Below are positions 8,294-57,419 of a stretch of 64,000 nucleotides of DNA, piece by piece. Position 1 is the first letter of the stretch. The number at the start of each line of letters is the position of its first letter. This stretch comes from Thermoleophilaceae bacterium (GTDB lineage: Bacteria > Actinomycetota > Thermoleophilia > Solirubrobacterales > Thermoleophilaceae), in NCBI GenBank assembly GCA_030448005.1, contig JAUJNT010000007.1, forward strand, positions 55,783 through 119,782. The letters are read 5' to 3'. The notes beneath the pieces were generated by a model. The model saw nothing but the letters and a program-made list of their open reading frames with translations. It was not told the DNA's origin and did not search any database. The translations under genes were made by a program, and so were the position numbers.

Positions 8294-9565
8294 TCATTCC
8301 TTCCTTGCGTAGGTCTCTCCCACGCCGATCCGCTCGATCGTCGTGGGGTGGGTGCCGAAGACCAGATGCCACAGCTTCGGCGGGTCGGGCTGAGAGATGT
8401 TCCTCAGCGCGAGGCTTCGCTCGAGGGCGATGAAGGCCGCCGGTTCCCGGGTGAGCTCGAGCGCGAAGGCGTCGGCACGGGCCTCGACCTGACGCGAGAG
8501 GACGTTGCCCGCGCAGGCGAGGCCGAAGCTCACGAGGGCCATGGCGAGGGCCACGGCCGGGACCACCTTCGGGCCGGCCCGCTCACCGCCGCCGGAGTTG
8601 CGGGTGGCGCCGAGCGGCGCTTGGGCGGCGAACCGCTCGGCCAGGCGCTGCATCAGCAGGGTGCCCGCCGGTGCCACGATCGCGATCCAGAGAAGGCCGC
8701 GCGGCAGGTCGCGTCCCTTGACGTGACCGAGCTCGTGCGCCACCACCGAGCGCACCTGATCCTCGGGGAACCCCTCGATCAGGTTGTCGTAGAGCACCAC
8801 TCGCTTCGTGTGCCCGAGCCCGCCGACGTAGGCGTTGATCCCCGTGGTCCGGCGGCTGGCGTCCACGCGGAGGACCTCGCCCACCTCCACATCCGACTGG
8901 TCGGCCAGCCTGAGCACGTCCGAGTGCAGCTTGCCCTCCGGCAGCGGCTCGAACTTGTTGAAGATAGGGTCGATCAGGACCGGTGAGAGATACAGGGTGA
9001 GCACGGCAAAGCCGACCACCCCACCGGCCGCGGGAACCCACCAGCGGCGCGGATAGCGCCGGATGAGAGCCAGCGCCACGACCGCCCCGAGCGCGGCCAG
9101 GGCCGCCTCGATCGCCGTGGACTTGGCCACGTCGCCGAGCCACGCTCCCAGCGACTGGGTGGAGAGGCCGACGTCCACCGCCCGCTCGTGGCTCCAGGCC
9201 GCAAGCGGCAGCCCGACTCCGGCCAGCGTCACCGAGATGCCGGCTCCCGCGAGCGCCGCTCCCCGCAACGGGCGCGTGGCCGCCCGCTCCAAGAGCCGGC
9301 GCACGCGCCGCGGCGGGCGCAGCGCGATCAACGCCAGGCCGGCCCCACTCAGCGCGATCCCGCCCAGGCCCAGGAGCCGCTGGGGTTCGCGGAAGTCCCT
9401 TGCCCGCTCCAGCTGGGCGGGGCTGAAGTAGGCTTCGGGCTGGACCGCGGTGGGTTCGAGGGAGCCGCCTCTGGGACGGAGGATGAGCGTTGCCGTCCCC
9501 GCCGCCACGACCGCCACGATGATCGCCACCGGTAAGCGAGAACGTTGAACGACCGCCCCGCGCAT
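8294..9565 (-). CDS. M48 family (Ste24/HtpX-like) membrane zinc metalloprotease
   Basis: About 423 residues, ATG at 9565. An N-terminal membrane helix, several further helices, then SVVAHELGHVKGRD with the zinc motif HELGH, and a downstream ..EARADAFALEL segment giving the third zinc ligand (Glu). YGGLGHTKRVVLYDNL-type text before the HExxH and the final GTHPTTIERI are typical of CAAX-protease-like M48 members. Function in bacteria is membrane protein quality control or processing. The ATG lies 21 nt inside the 5' end of the divergent metallophosphoesterase gene as annotated, so one of the two starts may be wrong. Confidence 0.88.
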   Translation of the reverse strand: MRGAVVQRSRLPVAIIVAVVAAGTATLILRPRGGSLEPTAVQPEAYFSPAQLERARDFREPQRLLGLGGIALSGAGLALIALRPPRRVRRLLERAATRPLRGAALAGAGISVTLAGVGLPLAAWSHERAVDVGLSTQSLGAWLGDVAKSTAIEAALAALGAVVALALIRRYPRRWWVPAAGGVVGFAVLTLYLSPVLIDPIFNKFEPLPEGKLHSDVLRLADQSDVEVGEVLRVDASRRTTGINAYVGGLGHTKRVVLYDNLIEGFPEDQVRSVVAHELGHVKGRDLPRGLLWIAIVAPAGTLLMQRLAERFAAQAPLGATRNSGGGERAGPKVVPAVALAMALVSFGLACAGNVLSRQVEARADAFALELTREPAAFIALERSLALRNISQPDPPKLWHLVFGTHPTTIERIGVGETYARKE

Positions 9566-10366
9566 ACGCAGCTGTCTTCCGTCGGGAGCACGGAGCTTTC
9601 GCCGGTCGTTCAAGCCCATGAGGGTAACGGCGCTCCCACGAGGGTCGCCCTGCTCACAGACGTCCACGGCAACCTGCCCGCCTTCATCGCCGTGCTCGCG
9701 GACGTGGACGCCCAGAATGTGGATGCGATCTGGTTCCTGGGCGACCTCGTGGGCTATGGCGCCCATCCCGACGAGTGCGTGAAGCTTGCAGCCGAGCGCT
9801 GTGACCTGTGCCTCGCGGGGAATCACGACCTGGGGGTGCTCAACCGGATAAGCATCGGTGACTTCTCGCCCACCGCGGCCAAGGCCGCGCTCTGGACCCG
9901 CCAGAGCTCCACGCAGGAGACCCTGGACTTCCTTGGCTCCCTCGAGCCCTCGAGGGTCGGCGGGCCCATCGGGCTCTATCACGCGAGCCCGCGCGACCCG
10001 GTCTGGGAGTACGTGCTCTCCGCGATGCAGGCCGAGGCGTGCATGGACCTGATGCCCGACCGCGTGGGAGCCATCGGCCACAGCCACGTGGCGCTGCGAT
10101 TCACGCGCGCCGACGGCGATGTCATGGGAGAGCAGGTGAGGGGCGGCAGCGTGCTCGACCTCTCAGAGGGCGATTGGCTCGTGAACCCCGGGAGCGTTGG
10201 CCAGCCGCGGGACGGCGATCCGCGCGCGGCGTGGATGCTGCTCGACGTGGACACTTGGACGGGCGAGTGGCGGCGCGTGGAGTACCCGATCGACGACGCC
10301 GCCGAGGCGATAGTGGACGCGGGACTGCCGCGCAGCCTGGGAGAGCGGCTCTACCTCGGGCAGTGA
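9545..10366 (+). CDS. Metallophosphoesterase (YfcE/calcineurin-like)
   Basis: Calcineurin-like phosphoesterase with the metal-site series LLTDVHGN (D and H ligands), FLGDLVGYG, LAGNHD, and GHSHVALRF near the end, followed by WLVNPGSVGQPRDGDPRAAW, which is typical of YfcE-type phosphodiesterases. The TTG at 9545 is the only start codon in frame upstream of the first motif and gives ~32 extra N-terminal residues; the natural start may be non-canonical or further in. Its stop overlaps the next gene's GTG (GTGA), so it is co-transcribed with the lipoprotein and kinase. Confidence 0.85.
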   Translation: MNDRPAHTQLSSVGSTELSPVVQAHEGNGAPTRVALLTDVHGNLPAFIAVLADVDAQNVDAIWFLGDLVGYGAHPDECVKLAAERCDLCLAGNHDLGVLNRISIGDFSPTAAKAALWTRQSSTQETLDFLGSLEPSRVGGPIGLYHASPRDPVWEYVLSAMQAEACMDLMPDRVGAIGHSHVALRFTRADGDVMGEQVRGGSVLDLSEGDWLVNPGSVGQPRDGDPRAAWMLLDVDTWTGEWRRVEYPIDDAAEAIVDAGLPRSLGERLYLGQ

Positions 10367-47828: not shown

Positions 47829-48764
47829 TTATTTCGCCGTGGGCTCCGCGTGATGATCGAGTGCCGCCGCGAGGAATCGGTAGGTGTAGTCCTCGGCCAG
47901 CTTGCGCGAGTCGGCGAAGACGATCGGCACCGCCGGATAGCGGACCTGCAGCCTCGTCACCGCCTCGCACAGCCATCCTGGCTGTACGTGGGGCACTTTG
48001 AGCAGGGCCGCGTAGCGCTCCTCGACCACGACGGCGGCCGACGGCACGCCCGCCAGCTCGGTCAGCTGGAACCCCAGCGAGCCGTCCACCACCGAGGTGG
48101 TGAAGTTCTCGAAGCTCTTGCGCTCCACAACCGCGACCACCGCGCCGTCCGGGCCCAGCACCGCATAGTCGCCCGCATTCAGCGCCCGCCGGCGACACTC
48201 GACGGGTCTGTTGGCGAACCGGTACCCGTAGCGCTCGTTGCTGTCGACCTCGATCGTCAGCTCGGCCGGCCCGGGCGCGCGGCGGGTCGGGACGCGAGTC
48301 CCCGGGCGCGACCGGCGGGCGGTCCGCGCCGTCTGCCAGAAGATCATCGACCGTCCCCCGTCCCGACCGGGGCGGGACTTCGTGAAGACGAACTGGGACC
48401 GGTTGTTTCGCCCGCGGTCGAGCACCAGGTCGATCGCCTGGCCGCGCCTGGCGCAGCGGCGCACCCCCACCTCCTCCACGACCGCCGCCTCCGTCGGCCA
48501 GCCCTCCTCGAGGGGATGGCAGTAGACGCGCGCGGTCACCGGCCAGAGCTCTCGCGCCTTCAGCTCGACGCCTCCTTCGAGCGGCAGCCGAAGCAGGTAG
48601 GGAAGCGAGCTCTCCTCGTCCGGATTGCGCGCGATCAGGAAGGTGGCGGGCGCGTCGGCCACGATGCCGCCAGAGGCTACAGCGCGTATCGGAGCAGCTC
48701 TCGCCCCGCATCGCCCGCCGCCCGTGGCCTCCGCCGCCCGGCTCTTCAGCTCGGCGGGTAGCAC
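47829..48764 (-). CDS. ERCC4-domain nuclease
   Basis: 311 residues, GTG start. The N-terminal 150 residues are unrecognised. From ~170 an ERCC4/XPF-type nuclease fold is seen: IEVDSNERYGYRF, LNAGDYAVLG, VVAVVERKSFENF (the GD...ERK catalytic pattern), then SLGFQLTELAGVPSAAVVVE and ERYAALLKVPHVQPGWL. Stand-alone bacterial ERCC4 nucleases act on branched or single-stranded DNA in repair or defence, but the N-terminal half is not typical. It is divergent from the sigma-factor operon. Confidence 0.8.
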   Translation of the reverse strand: MLPAELKSRAAEATGGGRCGARAAPIRAVASGGIVADAPATFLIARNPDEESSLPYLLRLPLEGGVELKARELWPVTARVYCHPLEEGWPTEAAVVEEVGVRRCARRGQAIDLVLDRGRNNRSQFVFTKSRPGRDGGRSMIFWQTARTARRSRPGTRVPTRRAPGPAELTIEVDSNERYGYRFANRPVECRRRALNAGDYAVLGPDGAVVAVVERKSFENFTTSVVDGSLGFQLTELAGVPSAAVVVEERYAALLKVPHVQPGWLCEAVTRLQVRYPAVPIVFADSRKLAEDYTYRFLAAALDHHAEPTAK

Positions 48765-48918
48765 GGCGCAACGGCGGCATGGGGCGCGACATCTGCACGG
48801 CGGGAACTGGGTCGTTGCCCATGCTCGACCTTGTTCTGTCTGCCACGAGCGCTACCTTGCTCGGCCCGCTCGGTCGGGGCATGTCAGATGAGCGAGAAGA
48901 AGGACGACTGAGTAGAAC

Positions 48919-49554
48919 GTGGGAGGCGGAGTCTTCAAGGAGAGGGGCGAGCACGAGCTTGCGGCGATGCCCGAGGACCGCCTGATCGCCTACCTGCTCG
49001 ACGCCCGCGCTCATGGGGCACCCACGGGCCTGGCGGTCTCGATCCTCGTCTACAAGCTGATGAGCGACGTGCGCCGGCGCGTGGCGATGAAGGTGCCGGC
49101 CGAGGCGATCGAGGAGGTCTCGGAGGCCGTGCTGCTGAGCGCTCTGACCTCGAACTTCGACGGCGGCAGCGTCGGAGAGTTCCGCTCGTGGCTCACCACG
49201 ATCGTGCGGCGCCGCATCGCCGACTACCACCGCAGCCCGAAGACCGACGTGCGCCTGGTCCCGCTGCCCGACGAGCACGAGGGCGACGACGAGCTCTGGG
49301 GCGCCCGCGCCTCGGTGCCCTTCGAGGGCGAGGCGATCGACGTGGAGCGGGCGCTCGAGCAGGCCAAGCGCGAGCTGAACCCCGACCATCTGGAGGTCGT
49401 CCTGCTCTACGTCTTCGAGGACCGCCCCGCCGCCGAGGTGGCAGACCGCGTGGACCGCACCACGGAGGCCAACGTGCACAAGATCGCCCAGCGCTTCCGC
49501 GACCGTGTCGGCGAGCTGCTCCCGGCGGCCGAAGACGATACTTCCACCACCTGA
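48919..49554 (+). CDS. Sigma-70 family (ECF-like) RNA polymerase sigma factor
   Basis: 211 residues, GTG start with GAAGAAGGA upstream. Region 2-like segment (LAVSILVYKLMSDVRRRVA, then FRSWLTTIVRRRIADYHR) and region 4-like helix-turn-helix (LNPDHLEVVLLYVFEDRPAA, EVADRVDRTTEANVHKIAQR). First gene of a four-gene operon (spacing 3, 37 and 5 nt) with two unknown proteins and an ImmA/IrrE peptidase. A usual anti-sigma gene is absent, so one of the unknowns may serve as its partner. Confidence 0.82.
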   Translation: MGGGVFKERGEHELAAMPEDRLIAYLLDARAHGAPTGLAVSILVYKLMSDVRRRVAMKVPAEAIEEVSEAVLLSALTSNFDGGSVGEFRSWLTTIVRRRIADYHRSPKTDVRLVPLPDEHEGDDELWGARASVPFEGEAIDVERALEQAKRELNPDHLEVVLLYVFEDRPAAEVADRVDRTTEANVHKIAQRFRDRVGELLPAAEDDTSTT

Positions 49555-49557
49555 GCC

Positions 49558-50199
49558 ATGGCCGACGTGGACACACTGCTGAAGCTGTACATAGCGGCGC
49601 ACAGGGCCGGCGAGGAAGCCGACCCGCGCGACTGGCTCGCCCGCGTTGAGGGCCGTGAGCGCGCCCTGCTAGCGGCGATGATCGACACCTACCTCGAGCG
49701 CGCGCCCGCACCCGAGTGGGACCCGGAGGCGTTCAGGCAGTCGGGGCTCGCCCCCTTGGCCGAGCGGATCGAGTCCTCGTTGCACGGCCAGGCGGGCACC
49801 TGGCCCGCCGTGCTGCCTAGCCTCAGCCACAAGGCAAGGCTCAAGCGCTCCGACTTGGTCGCGCGGCTTGCGGCCGCCCTCGGAGTCCCGGACAGGCAGG
49901 ACAAGGTGGGCTCCTATTACCACGAGATGGAGCGGGGGCTGCTCCCCGCCGAGGGCGTACAGGATCGGGTGCTGGAAGCGCTGGGGTCGATACTCGGCCA
50001 GAGCGCCGAGGCGCTGCGCACCGCCGGGCGCGCGCTCGCGCCCGGGCCCGGCGGGGATGTGGCAGGCGCGCCCGCCTTTGCGCGCGCGGCCAGGCCCGAC
50101 CCCGAGCTCATGGTGGACGCCATCTCTGCCCCACCCGCCGATGCCGCTGCCGCCGAGGACGAGTGGGACGAGGTCGACCGCCTCTTCCGCGGCGGCTGA
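49558..50199 (+). CDS. Unknown protein of the sigma-IrrE operon (possible helix-turn-helix)
   Basis: 213 residues, 3 nt after the sigma gene. A helical middle region reads LKRSDLVARLAAALGVPDRQ and continues with a YYHEMERGLLP stretch, which looks like a helix-turn-helix of XRE type; the C-terminus is acidic (AEDEWDEVDRLFRGG). No membrane segment. Could be an anti-sigma factor or a repressor that is the substrate of the peptidase two genes on. Both ideas are inference from position. Confidence 0.7.
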   Translation: MADVDTLLKLYIAAHRAGEEADPRDWLARVEGRERALLAAMIDTYLERAPAPEWDPEAFRQSGLAPLAERIESSLHGQAGTWPAVLPSLSHKARLKRSDLVARLAAALGVPDRQDKVGSYYHEMERGLLPAEGVQDRVLEALGSILGQSAEALRTAGRALAPGPGGDVAGAPAFARAARPDPELMVDAISAPPADAAAAEDEWDEVDRLFRGG

Positions 50200-50236
50200 G
50201 CGTCAGCCGGCGGCTCCAGCGAGCGACCATTCCCCC

Positions 50237-50467
50237 ATGCGAACAGAGCACGACCCAATCGCCTTCCTCCGGTTCGTGCTGCGCTCCGGCGACGTCGAGC
50301 TCGCCGAGCGCCTCACGCGCGCCCTCAGGTCAGACCCCCGCTACCGCGAGCGCGCGGAGGCGGTGCTCTCGGGGCTCGGTTCCGCCGGGCAGTCGCGGCA
50401 TTCGACGCCCGGCGGGAAGCTGCTCGACGCGCTGCTGGACCGCCTGGCCCCGCCGAGCCAGAATTAG
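50237..50467 (+). CDS. Small unknown protein of the sigma-IrrE operon
   Basis: 76 residues from the ATG at 50237, helical and charged: DPIAFLRFVLRSGDVELAER, then RALRSDPRYRERAEAVLSGL and a C-terminal LLDALLDRL. No family recognised. It sits 37 nt after the previous gene and 5 nt before the ImmA/IrrE gene, so it is part of the operon. Repeats and membrane segments are absent. Confidence 0.6.
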   Translation: MRTEHDPIAFLRFVLRSGDVELAERLTRALRSDPRYRERAEAVLSGLGSAGQSRHSTPGGKLLDALLDRLAPPSQN

Positions 50468-50472
50468 CCGCG

Positions 50473-51009
50473 ATGATGGAGATCGAGGAGCGCGCCGAGC
50501 GGGTGCTGGGCCGCGTGCCCGAGTGGGTCTGGGACGGCGAGTCGCTGCCCGTGCCGGTGGAGGACATCGCCGACAGCGTCTTCCGGCTGCGCGTCTGCGA
50601 GGTCGACGACCTGAGCGACGCGCCGGGCGCGCCCGCGCTCGAGCCGGGCAGCTCGCTGAGCGGACTGCTGCTGCCCGGCCGCGGCGAGATCTGGGTGAAC
50701 GGCCCGGAGGCCAGGCAGTGGCCGCCGCGCCGCCGGTTCACGATCGGACACGAGCTCGGCCACTGGTGCATGCACCGCACCGACCACGTCGCGTCGATCT
50801 ACTGCCGCTCTGCGAGCGTCGATCCCAAGGAGGAGCGCCCGGAGCGGCCGATGGCGGAGAAGGAGGCCGACGCGTTCGCCGCGGCGCTCCTGATGCCGGC
50901 GCGGCTGCTGCGGGAGCAGTACGGGCGGGATCGGGACTTCGGGCGGCTGTGCGTGCTGTTCGGGGCCTCGGGGGCCGCGATGGGGCGGCGGCTGCACGCT
51001 GTGATCTGA
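50473..51009 (+). CDS. ImmA/IrrE family metallopeptidase
   Basis: 178 residues. Zinc motif RRFTIGHELGHWCMH (HELGH) followed by MAEKEADAFAAALLMPARLL, which supplies the third ligand and the conserved helix. ImmA in ICEBs1 and IrrE/PprI in Deinococcus cleave a specific XRE-type repressor in response to stress. Here it closes an operon that begins with a sigma factor, which suggests protease-controlled release of that sigma or of the gene-2 protein. No fused GAF or HTH domain is present; length is typical of the minimal form. Confidence 0.9.
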   Translation: MMEIEERAERVLGRVPEWVWDGESLPVPVEDIADSVFRLRVCEVDDLSDAPGAPALEPGSSLSGLLLPGRGEIWVNGPEARQWPPRRRFTIGHELGHWCMHRTDHVASIYCRSASVDPKEERPERPMAEKEADAFAAALLMPARLLREQYGRDRDFGRLCVLFGASGAAMGRRLHAVI

Positions 51010-51800: not shown

Positions 51801-53447
51801 ATGGCGCGCGCCTACCCCCGCACCCTCCTCGACGCGGACGTCAAGACCGATTCCGAGCGCAAGGTGTTCGAGTTGCTCGAGGCGTCGCTGCCCGAGGAAT
51901 GGGAGGTCTTTCACTCCTCGTCGTGGGTGGCGCGTGATCCCGCGGAGGGGGCCGACTCGCACGAGATCGACTTCGTGCTCTGCAGGCCGGACGAAGCCGT
52001 GCTGTGCCTGGAGGTGAAGGGTGGAGGAATCGAGTGCCGGCACGGGGAGTGGTTCCGGGTGGCGCCCGGCGGGAAGCGGGAGCGGATCAAGGACCCGTTC
52101 CAGCAGGCGCTCGACAACCGGTTCGCACTGGAGCGACAGCTCCAGCAGACGGCCGGCTGGGGCAAGACGAGGCGGATGATCGTCCACGCCGTCGCGTTCC
52201 CCTACCTGACGATCCATCAGCTCGCCTTGGCGCCGGATGCCCCCAGGGAGATACTCATCGACCGCCACGACCTCGAGGACCCGACGGAAGCGATCGAGAA
52301 AGTGCTCGCCTACCACCGTGGCGCGCGCGACAAGCGAAGGGCGCCCGGGGATGACGGCGCCGCCGCGCTGCGCGAGCTACTCGCGCCGACGATCTCGATC
52401 CGCGTGCCGATGGCGGCGCAGTTCCTCGCGGAGGAGGAGGCGCTGATCCATCTGACCCACGACCAGTCCCGCCTCCTCACCCACGTGCGGCACGCCGATC
52501 GCCTCGTCGTACGGGGCTGCGCCGGCTCTGGCAAGACGATGCTCGGAGTCGAGCATGGGCGGCGCCTGGCATCGGAGGGAAAGAGGGTCCTGTTCGTCTG
52601 CTTCAACCGCGCCCTGCGCGATCACCTGCGGGCGACGTCGCGGGTCGACGGACTCGACATCCACAACTTCCACGGCCTCTGCTTTCACCTCGCGAGCCGG
52701 TGTGGAATCAAGCTGTCGAAGCACGATGGCGATCCGCCACCCGAGTTCTGGAACGAGGAGCTGCCCGATGCGCTGGTCGAGGCGATCGACATCCTCGGCG
52801 ACCAGTACGACGCGCTGATCGTCGACGAGGCCCAGGACCTGGCAACGCACTGGTTGACGGCGCTGATGGCGACGCTCGCAGACGAGCGTGAGAACCCGGT
52901 CTGGCTCTTCATGGACGACAACCAGCGCGTCTACGAGACCCAGCTCGAGGTCCCGCGCGAGTTTCAGCCCTTCGACCTCACGGTGAACTGTCGCAACACA
53001 CAGGCCGTCCACCGCGAGGTGATGAAGCTCTACGAGGGCGACATCGCGCCCGAGGTGAAGGGCCCGGAGGGCCGGGCCGTCGAGCTCCACCACACCCAGG
53101 ACGCGACAACGACGGTGGCGGGCGCGATATCCCGGCTATGCGGCGAGGAAGAGGTCGCTCCCCAGGACATCGTGGTGCTGTCCTCGCACGGGTTTGCCAA
53201 CTCGACCGTCGCCCAGACGCTCCCGGGCGAATGGCGACCGACCGACGAGCGCGGCAAGCTCGGCAAGCTCGGCAACTACATCTACTGCTCCTCGATCCGC
53301 GCCTTCAAGGGCCTCGAGTCGCCCGTCGTCGTGCTCTGCGAGCTCGAGGACATCGACGACATGACGATCAACCAGCAGCTGTACGTGGCGATCTCGAGGG
53401 CGCGGAATCACTGCGTGATCGTGGCGCCGCCGGCTGCGGAGGAGTGA
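51801..53447 (+). CDS. NERD-domain nuclease / SF1 (UvrD-like) helicase fusion
   Basis: 548 residues. N-terminal NERD nuclease-related domain: DSHEIDFVLCRPDEAVLCLE followed by VKGGGIECRHGEW (Asp ... E-V-K nuclease pattern, ~53-80). From ~230 an SF1 helicase: VVRGCAGSGKTML (Walker A), ALIVDEAQDLATHW (DEAQD), FMDDNQRVYE (motif III), LTVNCRNTQAVH (motif IV region), SSIRAFKGLESPVVVLCELE (motif V), YVAISRARNHC (motif VI). All helicase motifs are intact. Nuclease-helicase fusions of this shape are found in bacterial defence islands as well as in repair; its placement between an HD hydrolase and TA modules favours an accessory role, without proof. Confidence 0.88.
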   Translation: MARAYPRTLLDADVKTDSERKVFELLEASLPEEWEVFHSSSWVARDPAEGADSHEIDFVLCRPDEAVLCLEVKGGGIECRHGEWFRVAPGGKRERIKDPFQQALDNRFALERQLQQTAGWGKTRRMIVHAVAFPYLTIHQLALAPDAPREILIDRHDLEDPTEAIEKVLAYHRGARDKRRAPGDDGAAALRELLAPTISIRVPMAAQFLAEEEALIHLTHDQSRLLTHVRHADRLVVRGCAGSGKTMLGVEHGRRLASEGKRVLFVCFNRALRDHLRATSRVDGLDIHNFHGLCFHLASRCGIKLSKHDGDPPPEFWNEELPDALVEAIDILGDQYDALIVDEAQDLATHWLTALMATLADERENPVWLFMDDNQRVYETQLEVPREFQPFDLTVNCRNTQAVHREVMKLYEGDIAPEVKGPEGRAVELHHTQDATTTVAGAISRLCGEEEVAPQDIVVLSSHGFANSTVAQTLPGEWRPTDERGKLGKLGNYIYCSSIRAFKGLESPVVVLCELEDIDDMTINQQLYVAISRARNHCVIVAPPAAEE

Positions 53448-57189: not shown

Positions 57190-57233
57190 CGAGACCGCTG
57201 TCAGATCGTCGACCCAGCGGCGACCTGACGGGC

Positions 57234-57419
57234 ATGACCACAAGGAAACCTCATCCCGACCCTCCCCCACAACGCGGGACCTACGCCTGGTTCGAGTCGC
57301 TGCCGGCCGAGGCCAAGCGCGAGTACATCGAGCAGTACGGCTGCCCGCCGGCGAAGCCGGGCTCCCGCTCGTTCACTCCCGGCAGCCTGTCGCCGTACCG
57401 GCGCGAGATCGGGCGGTAG
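57234..57419 (+). CDS. Small protein downstream of the RelA/SpoT-domain gene
   Basis: 61 residues from the ATG at 57234. A Pro-rich start is followed by GTYAWFESLPAEAKREYIEQ, a short amphipathic helix, and a Pro/Arg/Ser-rich end. No known family. If the upstream gene is a toxSAS, this could be the antitoxin; it might also be a chance frame. The gap from the upstream stop is 44 nt. Confidence 0.4.
   Translation: MTTRKPHPDPPPQRGTYAWFESLPAEAKREYIEQYGCPPAKPGSRSFTPGSLSPYRREIGR

What the first reader, a model, noticed from the sequence alone, without database searches (positions are those of the whole stretch)
48919..51009. Four-gene sigma factor - unknown - unknown - ImmA/IrrE peptidase operon
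Tight spacing (3, 37, 5 nt) joins a sigma factor lacking an obvious anti-sigma partner, a possible HTH protein, a 76-residue helical protein and a HELGH peptidase. Established: ImmA and IrrE relieve repression by cleaving XRE-type repressors. Inference: here the peptidase could release the sigma factor by cutting gene 2 or 3, a switch not described to my knowledge in this form.
Basis: partly seen in the sequence, partly recalled or inferred. Interest (0 to 1): 0.7.

Follow-up and report, generated by a model that had tools for sequence, protein, structure and literature searches.

The report
Peptidase-switched sigma factor for DNA repair
A conserved gene cluster of soil actinobacteria pairs a sigma factor with a predicted inhibitor and a DNA-damage-type peptidase, and the sigma factor's likely promoters sit in front of DNA repair genes, so it looks like an undescribed DNA-damage response running beside the classical SOS system.

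Summary
Sigma and gene 2 are adjacent in 59 of 61 loci across Thermoleophilia, mostly followed by the M78 (ImmA/IrrE) peptidase; gene 3 is a lineage-specific extra. Upstream of sigma lies a conserved ECF-type promoter, [CT]GTCAG-N16/17-CGAC (22 of 60 loci; 0.1 expected), usually about 9 nt before the start codon. In the window's genome it also precedes gene 3-peptidase, addB, ssb, a yhaM-like gene, DUF2130 and ARPP-1 genes; elsewhere addB, sbcD, rmuC, ssb and a DnaQ-like exonuclease. In four genomes, one outside the class, the peptidase gene runs straight into an sbcD-sbcC-type pair. Gene 2 has a helical N-terminal part that orders only when modelled with sigma, an XRE-like HTH, and a disordered linker with a near-invariant Arg and a conserved C-terminal helix. 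Best reading: DNA damage activates the peptidase, which cuts anti-sigma gene 2 and frees sigma to switch on repair genes. The promoter and regulon are well supported by sequence, sigma-gene 2 binding by one model; cleavage and ssDNA sensing are inferred. LexA is also present, so this would run in parallel with SOS.

The parts
48882..48908 (+). ECF-type promoter of the operon: -35 TGTCAG (48882-48887), 17-nt spacer, -10 CGAC (48905-48908); 10 nt before the GTG start, so the mRNA is probably leaderless
48919..49554 (+). gene 1: ECF-like sigma-70 factor (211 aa)
49558..50199 (+). gene 2: predicted soluble anti-sigma factor with XRE-like HTH (213 aa)
49558..49785 (+). gene 2 N-terminal helical part (residues 1-76); residues 51-80 go from pLDDT 62-71 alone to 86-93 when modelled with the sigma factor
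49801..50031 (+). gene 2 XRE-like five-helix HTH (residues 82-158)
50077..50085 (+). gene 2 FAR motif (residues 174-176), Arg176 in 43 of 45 homologues inside a disordered linker; candidate cleavage site (inference)
50167..50190 (+). gene 2 C-terminal DEVDRLF helix (residues 204-211), D207/L209/F210 in 42-44 of 45 homologues
50201..50227 (+). second sigma-type promoter CGTCAG-N17-CGAC, 9 nt before the ATG of gene 3; similar elements in L149, L150, L152, L156
50237..50467 (+). gene 3: small protein (76 aa) of unknown family, only in some lineages
50473..51009 (+). gene 4: M78 (ImmA/IrrE, CapP-like) metallopeptidase, HELGH at 50749-50763
57199..57224 (+). third copy of the promoter in the window, 9 nt before an ORF of 61 aa (57234-57419); predicted regulon member

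Best explanation
The cluster is a cytoplasmic sigma/anti-sigma switch for DNA damage. Gene 1 is an autoregulated ECF-type sigma factor that recognises [CT]GTCAG-N16/17-CGAC promoters (well supported by sequence). Its regulon holds its own operon, the gene 3-peptidase pair and DNA-end-processing and repair genes such as addB, ssb, sbcD, rmuC, yhaM-like and DUF2130 genes (well supported by sequence). Gene 2 binds the sigma factor through its helical N-terminal part and keeps it off RNA polymerase (supported by modelling only). When DNA is damaged the M78 peptidase, probably stimulated by single-stranded DNA like PprI and CapP, cuts gene 2 in its disordered linker, most likely at the FAR motif, and the freed sigma factor switches on repair and more of its own operon (inferred). 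The pathway would run in parallel with LexA, which is present.
For: Conserved order: sigma-gene 2 in 59/61 loci, peptidase directly behind in most. Promoter: 22/60 sigma genes have [CT]GTCAG-N16/17-CGAC upstream against 0.06-0.13 in shuffles; 35/60 with the relaxed YGT[AC]AG form against 0.4. CGAC sits at spacing 16/17 in 22 of 28 sites; the distance to the start codon peaks at 9 nt. Unselected genome sites: 17/41 in promoter position and 14/41 inside genes, against 1/28 and 25/28 for the backward pattern (Fisher 5e-4 and 5e-6). Own-genome targets addB, ssb, yhaM-like, DUF2130, ARPP-1, TPR, a small family and sigma recur as targets in other genomes: 8 of 30 sites against 2 of 28 control sites, one of which overlaps a true site. 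addB carries the element or a near form in 16 of 17 genomes of genus g18 and in none of 13 from other genera. sbcD, rmuC, ssb and a DnaQ-like exonuclease are targets elsewhere. Operons sigma-x-gene 2-peptidase-sbcD-sbcC in four genomes, one outside the class. Gene 2 residues 51-80 gain order with sigma, pTM 0.70. Arg176 and the DExDxLF tail are the strongly conserved islands of a disordered linker. Peptidase closest to CapP in PADLOC (6e-23); PprI and CapP are ssDNA-activated (PMC10904395).
Against: No experiment shows binding, cleavage or induction. The sigma-gene 2 model is one fused chain (stop codon read as Trp as a modelling device) with 12 alignment rows and no interface score or coordinates to inspect. 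The backward-pattern control is imperfect: genomes without a detected gene 2 also show some excess of the pattern (ratio 1.57 against 2.28). 25 of 60 loci lack even the relaxed promoter. The addB series is mostly one genus and therefore phylogenetically correlated. Many predicted targets have unknown function. The peptidase is convergent with gene 2, not co-directional, in 12 loci.
Confidence: 0.6

Rival explanations
1. Gene 2 is an ordinary XRE-type DNA-binding repressor like CapH, DdrO or ImmR. The peptidase cuts it, and the sigma factor is just the first gene de-repressed, giving a repressor-then-sigma cascade.
For: HTH_31 matches in 22 of 45 homologues; fold neighbours are SinR, lambda repressor and ClgR; known M78 substrates are XRE-type proteins (PMC10904395).
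Against: The conserved footprint upstream of the operon shows only the -35 and -10 elements and no operator palindrome. Gene 2 has an extra N-terminal part and a conserved C-terminal tail, and residues 51-80 order only with the sigma factor.
Confidence: 0.2
2. A CapH-CapP-like regulator of anti-phage or conflict genes rather than of housekeeping DNA repair.
For: The peptidase's best PADLOC model is capP; targets include ARPP-1, cREC and vWA proteins; the SMC partner of the sbcD-like gene also resembles LmuB and mad3; a NERD-UvrD helicase lies 0.8 kb downstream.
Against: addB, ssb, rmuC and sbcD are core repair genes; gene 2 is absent from phages, plasmids and viral contigs; the immediate neighbours in the window include no CBASS gene.
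Confidence: 0.12
3. The TGTCAG element is the PafBC (P1) promoter of actinobacterial DNA-damage genes, and the sigma factor is merely one more PafBC target.
For: The P1 consensus tTGTCRgtg-8 nt-TAnnnT shares the TGTCRG core and also controls repair genes (PMC5656591).
Against: TAnnnT occurs at no spacing from 4 to 25 nt in 28 sigma-gene sites, none is followed by TG, and CGAC lies at 16/17 nt in 22 of 28. The arrangement matches an ECF promoter such as ECF41 TGTCACA-n16-CGTC (PMC3426412).
Confidence: 0.06
4. The genes are neighbours without a joint function.
For: Several loci have the peptidase on the other strand or kilobases away.
Against: Order kept in 59/61 loci for sigma-gene 2 and mostly for the peptidase, shared promoter logic, and overlapping genes in the extended sbcCD operons.
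Confidence: 0.02

Closest known systems
PprI(IrrE)-DdrO of Deinococcus
   Same: M78 metallopeptidase with a partner that has an XRE-like HTH; DNA repair output; residues at the positions of the ssDNA-contacting Arg85 and Phe88 of PprI are present (Arg86 and Phe89 before HELGH)
   Different: Output here is an ECF sigma factor, not de-repression alone; gene 2 has an additional sigma-associated N-terminal part; [quoted passage not shown]
CapH-CapP of CBASS and Bub operons
   Same: CapP is the closest PADLOC family of the peptidase (6e-23); HTH partner; peptidase-plus-HTH logic
   Different: No immune operon beside it in the window; a sigma factor is interposed; targets are scattered chromosomal repair genes
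[quoted passage not shown]
   Same: Cytoplasmic anti-sigma encoded right after an autoregulated ECF sigma gene
   Different: Reported mechanisms are conformational change, partner switch and mechanosensing (PMC8999054); cleavage by an M78 peptidase is not among them
ECF41 sigma factors
   Same: Similar promoter, TGTCACA-n16-CGTC (PMC3426412)
   Different: No fused C-terminal regulatory domain here, other neighbours, and a -35 of TGTCAG with a -10 of CGAC
PafBC DNA-damage response
   Same: LexA-independent control of repair genes in actinobacteria through a TGTCRG-bearing promoter
   Different: PafBC is a WYL activator that adapts sigma-A; spacing and -10 element differ

Membership tests
M78 (ImmA/IrrE) metallopeptidase | Pfam PF06114 above its cut-off and an HEXXH motif | tested here: met
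   47.1 bits against 22; HELGH at residues 93-97
M78 (ImmA/IrrE) metallopeptidase | Site-specific cleavage of an XRE-type partner | not testable with these tools
   needs biochemistry
CapH-CapP regulators | CapP-like peptidase sequence | tested here: met
   PADLOC capP 6.3e-23
CapH-CapP regulators | Sits beside and controls a CBASS, Bub or similar immune operon | tested here: not met
   neighbours are a PRK/uridine kinase, an ERCC4-domain protein, an HD protein and a NERD-UvrD helicase; no CBASS gene
PprI-DdrO | Partner is a stand-alone XRE repressor bound to a palindromic operator | tested here: not met
   gene 2 has extra parts; no conserved operator palindrome upstream, only -35/-10 elements
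ECF sigma factor | Regions 2 and 4 only, matching TIGR02937 | tested here: met
   43.7 bits against a cut-off of 42.9; the model resembles SigE and AlgU
ECF sigma factor | Autoregulated bipartite promoter | tested here: met
   by sequence only:
Soluble anti-sigma factor | Encoded next to the sigma gene | tested here: met
   59 of 61 loci
Soluble anti-sigma factor | Recognisable anti-sigma domain | tested here: inconclusive
   no Pfam match; the model shows helices that order only with the sigma factor
PafBC (P1) promoter | TGTCRGTG-N8-TAnnnT | tested here: not met
   TAnnnT in 0 of 28 sites

The most novel reading that the evidence does not exclude
A new type of bacterial DNA-damage response: an ssDNA-activated M78 peptidase cuts a soluble anti-sigma factor, releasing an ECF sigma factor that drives a chromosomal double-strand-break repair regulon in parallel with SOS across Thermoleophilia and a few relatives.
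Probability: 0.5. Interest if true: 0.88.

Novelty: new variant of a known kind. Interest (0 to 1): 0.8.

Why it matters
Known SOS alternatives act by repressor cleavage (DdrO, CapH) or by ssDNA-binding activators (PafBC, DriD). A sigma factor dedicated to DNA repair and released by a damage-sensing peptidase would join two signalling types, ECF sigma/anti-sigma and IrrE-type proteolysis, that I did not find joined in the literature searched. It gives a ready list of target genes, including unknown ones (TPR, vWA, ARPP-1, DUF2130), in a large and poorly studied soil class, and a named species with a strain number (Conexibacter arvalis DSM 23288) in which to test it.

Tried and rejected
Mobile element or phage origin: no match to gene 2 in phages, plasmids or viral contigs. 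Gene 3 as the key substrate: present in only a few lineages. PafBC promoter: rejected on spacing. Replacement of SOS: rejected, since LexA is present in the own genome and over the cut-off in 96 of 101 order members. Gene 2 in PDB by sequence: only TAL-effector and designed helical proteins, judged compositional. Weak gene-2 hits in other actinobacteria cover only part of the protein and mostly lack the neighbours, so they were not counted. Alignments with a fused chain failed at first because fragments aligned to the wrong gene; a smaller balanced set was used for sigma-gene 2. Two reviews of ECF regulation gave no M78-controlled group; the 2021 ECF reclassification paper was not held.

Full report
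Observation. The window holds four tightly packed + strand genes at the stated places: an ECF-like sigma factor (48919-49554), a 213-aa protein (49558-50199), a 76-aa protein (50237-50467) and an M78 metallopeptidase with HELGH (50473-51009). It is the only M78 gene found in the 3.23-Mb genome. Close relatives are Thermoleophilaceae and Solirubrobacterales MAGs and Conexibacter arvalis.

Conservation. A class-wide sample found gene-4 homologues in 93 of 299 genomes and gene-2 homologues in 78 of 299. Of 61 loci (60 fetched, plus the window), 59 have the sigma gene next to gene 2; the peptidase follows on the same strand in most and is convergent with gene 2 in 12. Gene 3 is confined to the own genus and a few relatives with diverged copies. 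The core is therefore sigma, gene 2, peptidase. Outside the class one clear case turned up in a phylum sample of 396 genomes. Phages, plasmids and viral contigs gave none.

Gene 2. By itself it matches nothing, but 22 of 45 homologues match HTH_31. The model (14 sequences) has an N-terminal helical bundle, a less certain middle (residues 51-80, pLDDT 62-71), a five-helix XRE-like domain, a disordered linker (about 162-203) and a C-terminal helix (205-211). Foldseek neighbours are SinR, lambda repressor and ClgR, none below E 0.001. In the linker and tail the strongly conserved islands are Arg176 of a hydrophobic-x-Arg motif (43 of 45) and the tail DE[IV]DxLF (D207 42, L209 44, F210 44 of 45). 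Sigma and gene 2 happen to lie in one frame separated by a TGA; reading it as Trp, purely as a modelling device, gave a fused model with pTM 0.70 in which gene-2 residues 51-80 rise to pLDDT 86-93, although fewer gene-2 rows were supplied. This suggests, but does not prove, that the N-terminal part folds onto the sigma factor. The fused model's sensible PDB matches are SigE from the RseA complex, SigL and AlgU from the MucA complex, matched through the sigma part and without significant E-values.

Promoter. Upstream of the sigma genes TGTCA and GTCAG are strongly enriched at a fixed place. Aligned on it, a second element CGAC appears 16 or 17 nt further on. [CT]GTCAG-N16/17-CGAC occurs within 130 nt of 22 of 60 sigma genes against 0.064 expected, maximum 1 in 500 shuffles. 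In other families the -35 reads YGTAAG, giving 35 of 60 with the relaxed form against 0.4 expected. The distance from CGAC to the start codon peaks at 9 nt, as expected for leaderless transcripts. The layout resembles ECF41 promoters, TGTCACA-n16-CGTC (PMC3426412). It is not the PafBC P1 promoter tTGTCRgtg-8-TAnnnT (PMC5656591): TAnnnT occurs in 0 of 28 sites at any spacing from 4 to 25. A second copy lies between gene 2 and gene 3 (50201-50227), 9 nt before the gene-3 start; L149 and L150 have it at the same distance, and L152 and L156 have one in the same gap.

Regulon. In the own genome the TGTCAG form occurs 11 times (backward control 6) and the CGTCAGR form 19 times (control 8). Four TGTCAG sites lie within about 17 kb, the operon's own included. 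Promoter-position targets are sigma-gene 2, gene 3-peptidase, addB (12 nt), ssb (66 nt), a yhaM-like OB-HD gene (9 nt), a DUF2130 gene (9 nt), a TPR gene (9 nt), ARPP-1 (24 nt), a small recurrent gene that looks frameshifted here, and an ORF of 61 aa. In other genomes targets include addB (5 fetched), sbcD, rmuC, a DnaQ-like exonuclease, ssb, yhaM-like, clpC, htpX, DUF2130, vWA, TPR and ARPP-1 genes. Eight of 30 own sites have a downstream ORF homologous to a target elsewhere; of 28 backward-pattern control sites two did, one of them because it overlaps a true site. Unselected true sites are inside predicted genes in 14 of 41 cases and in promoter position in 17; control sites in 25 of 28 and 1 of 28. 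For addB, 10 of 17 genomes of genus g18 match the script's pattern and six more show a near form by eye (such as AGTCAG or TGTCAC for the -35); none of 13 genomes of other genera does, one of which (G148) does have the system; genus g35 keeps only a housekeeping-like TAnnnT element. Caveat: genomes without detected gene 2 also show some excess of the pattern (ratio 1.57, against 2.28 with the system; Mann-Whitney p 0.0017), so the background control is not perfect.

Independent operon evidence. In four genomes (L343 outside the class, L344, L345, L346, from different families) the operon reads sigma, an intervening small gene or gap, gene 2, peptidase, then an sbcD-like phosphoesterase and an sbcC/Rad50-like ATPase, with neighbouring genes overlapping by a few nucleotides. 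Pfam was run on three of the four pairs. In three more loci an ARPP-1-like gene follows the peptidase; the Pfam match was checked for one of them. This does not depend on the motif.

Mechanism. Shown by sequence: conserved gene pair and order; a conserved ECF-type promoter before the operon and before repair genes; co-operonic sbcCD-type genes. Supported by a model: gene 2 contacts the sigma factor. Inferred: the peptidase cuts gene 2, probably in the linker at the Arg176 motif. In DdrO the cleaved loop carries an Arg that contacts ssDNA, and PprI and CapP are both ssDNA-activated (PMC10904395); the peptidase keeps Arg86 and Phe89 at the positions of the PprI ssDNA contacts Arg85 and Phe88 relative to HEXXH. 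How cleavage frees the sigma factor is open: the tail may be needed for stable binding or may recruit the peptidase. The sigma factor would raise its own operon, including peptidase and inhibitor, which gives positive and negative feedback. LexA is present in the own genome and in nearly all order members, so this would be a second DNA-damage branch.

Verdict. Confirmed observation, partly supported interpretation, and a larger finding than stated: a candidate DNA-repair sigma regulon. I found no description of an M78-controlled sigma factor in the papers searched, but most subscription journals and the 2021 ECF reclassification were not held, so novelty is provisional.

Noticed in passing
window 47832-48764 (-) and 51801-53447 (+): An ERCC4-domain protein upstream on the opposite strand and a NERD-UvrD helicase (PADLOC RTasNERD-Hel 1.5e-60) downstream flank the operon.
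   Followed up: partly
window 57199-57419: Promoter copy 9 nt before an ORF of 61 aa.
   Followed up: partly
L204 about 8330-10023 (own genome, just past the window end): The recurrent small target gene (MWLVTDRGFYS family) looks frameshifted in the own genome.
   Followed up: no
L214 (G124:C1:723925 and 724080): Two identical promoter copies 155 nt apart upstream of a vWA-domain gene.
   Followed up: no
L120/L147 (G025:C26): A second sigma and gene-2 fragment on the opposite strand next to the first operon; G009 also has several gene-2 matches.
   Followed up: no
genomes G139, G198, G230, G218: Strong excess of the promoter pattern although no gene 2 was detected with a single-sequence search; a diverged system may be present.
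   Followed up: no
L062, L204, L205, L233: A TPR protein family of unknown function is among the most recurrent predicted targets.
   Followed up: partly
L063, L070, L072, L074, L077-L079 upstream regions: A GTATCTTGG-like element lies upstream of the TGTCAG element in several genomes of family f2; unexplained.
   Followed up: no
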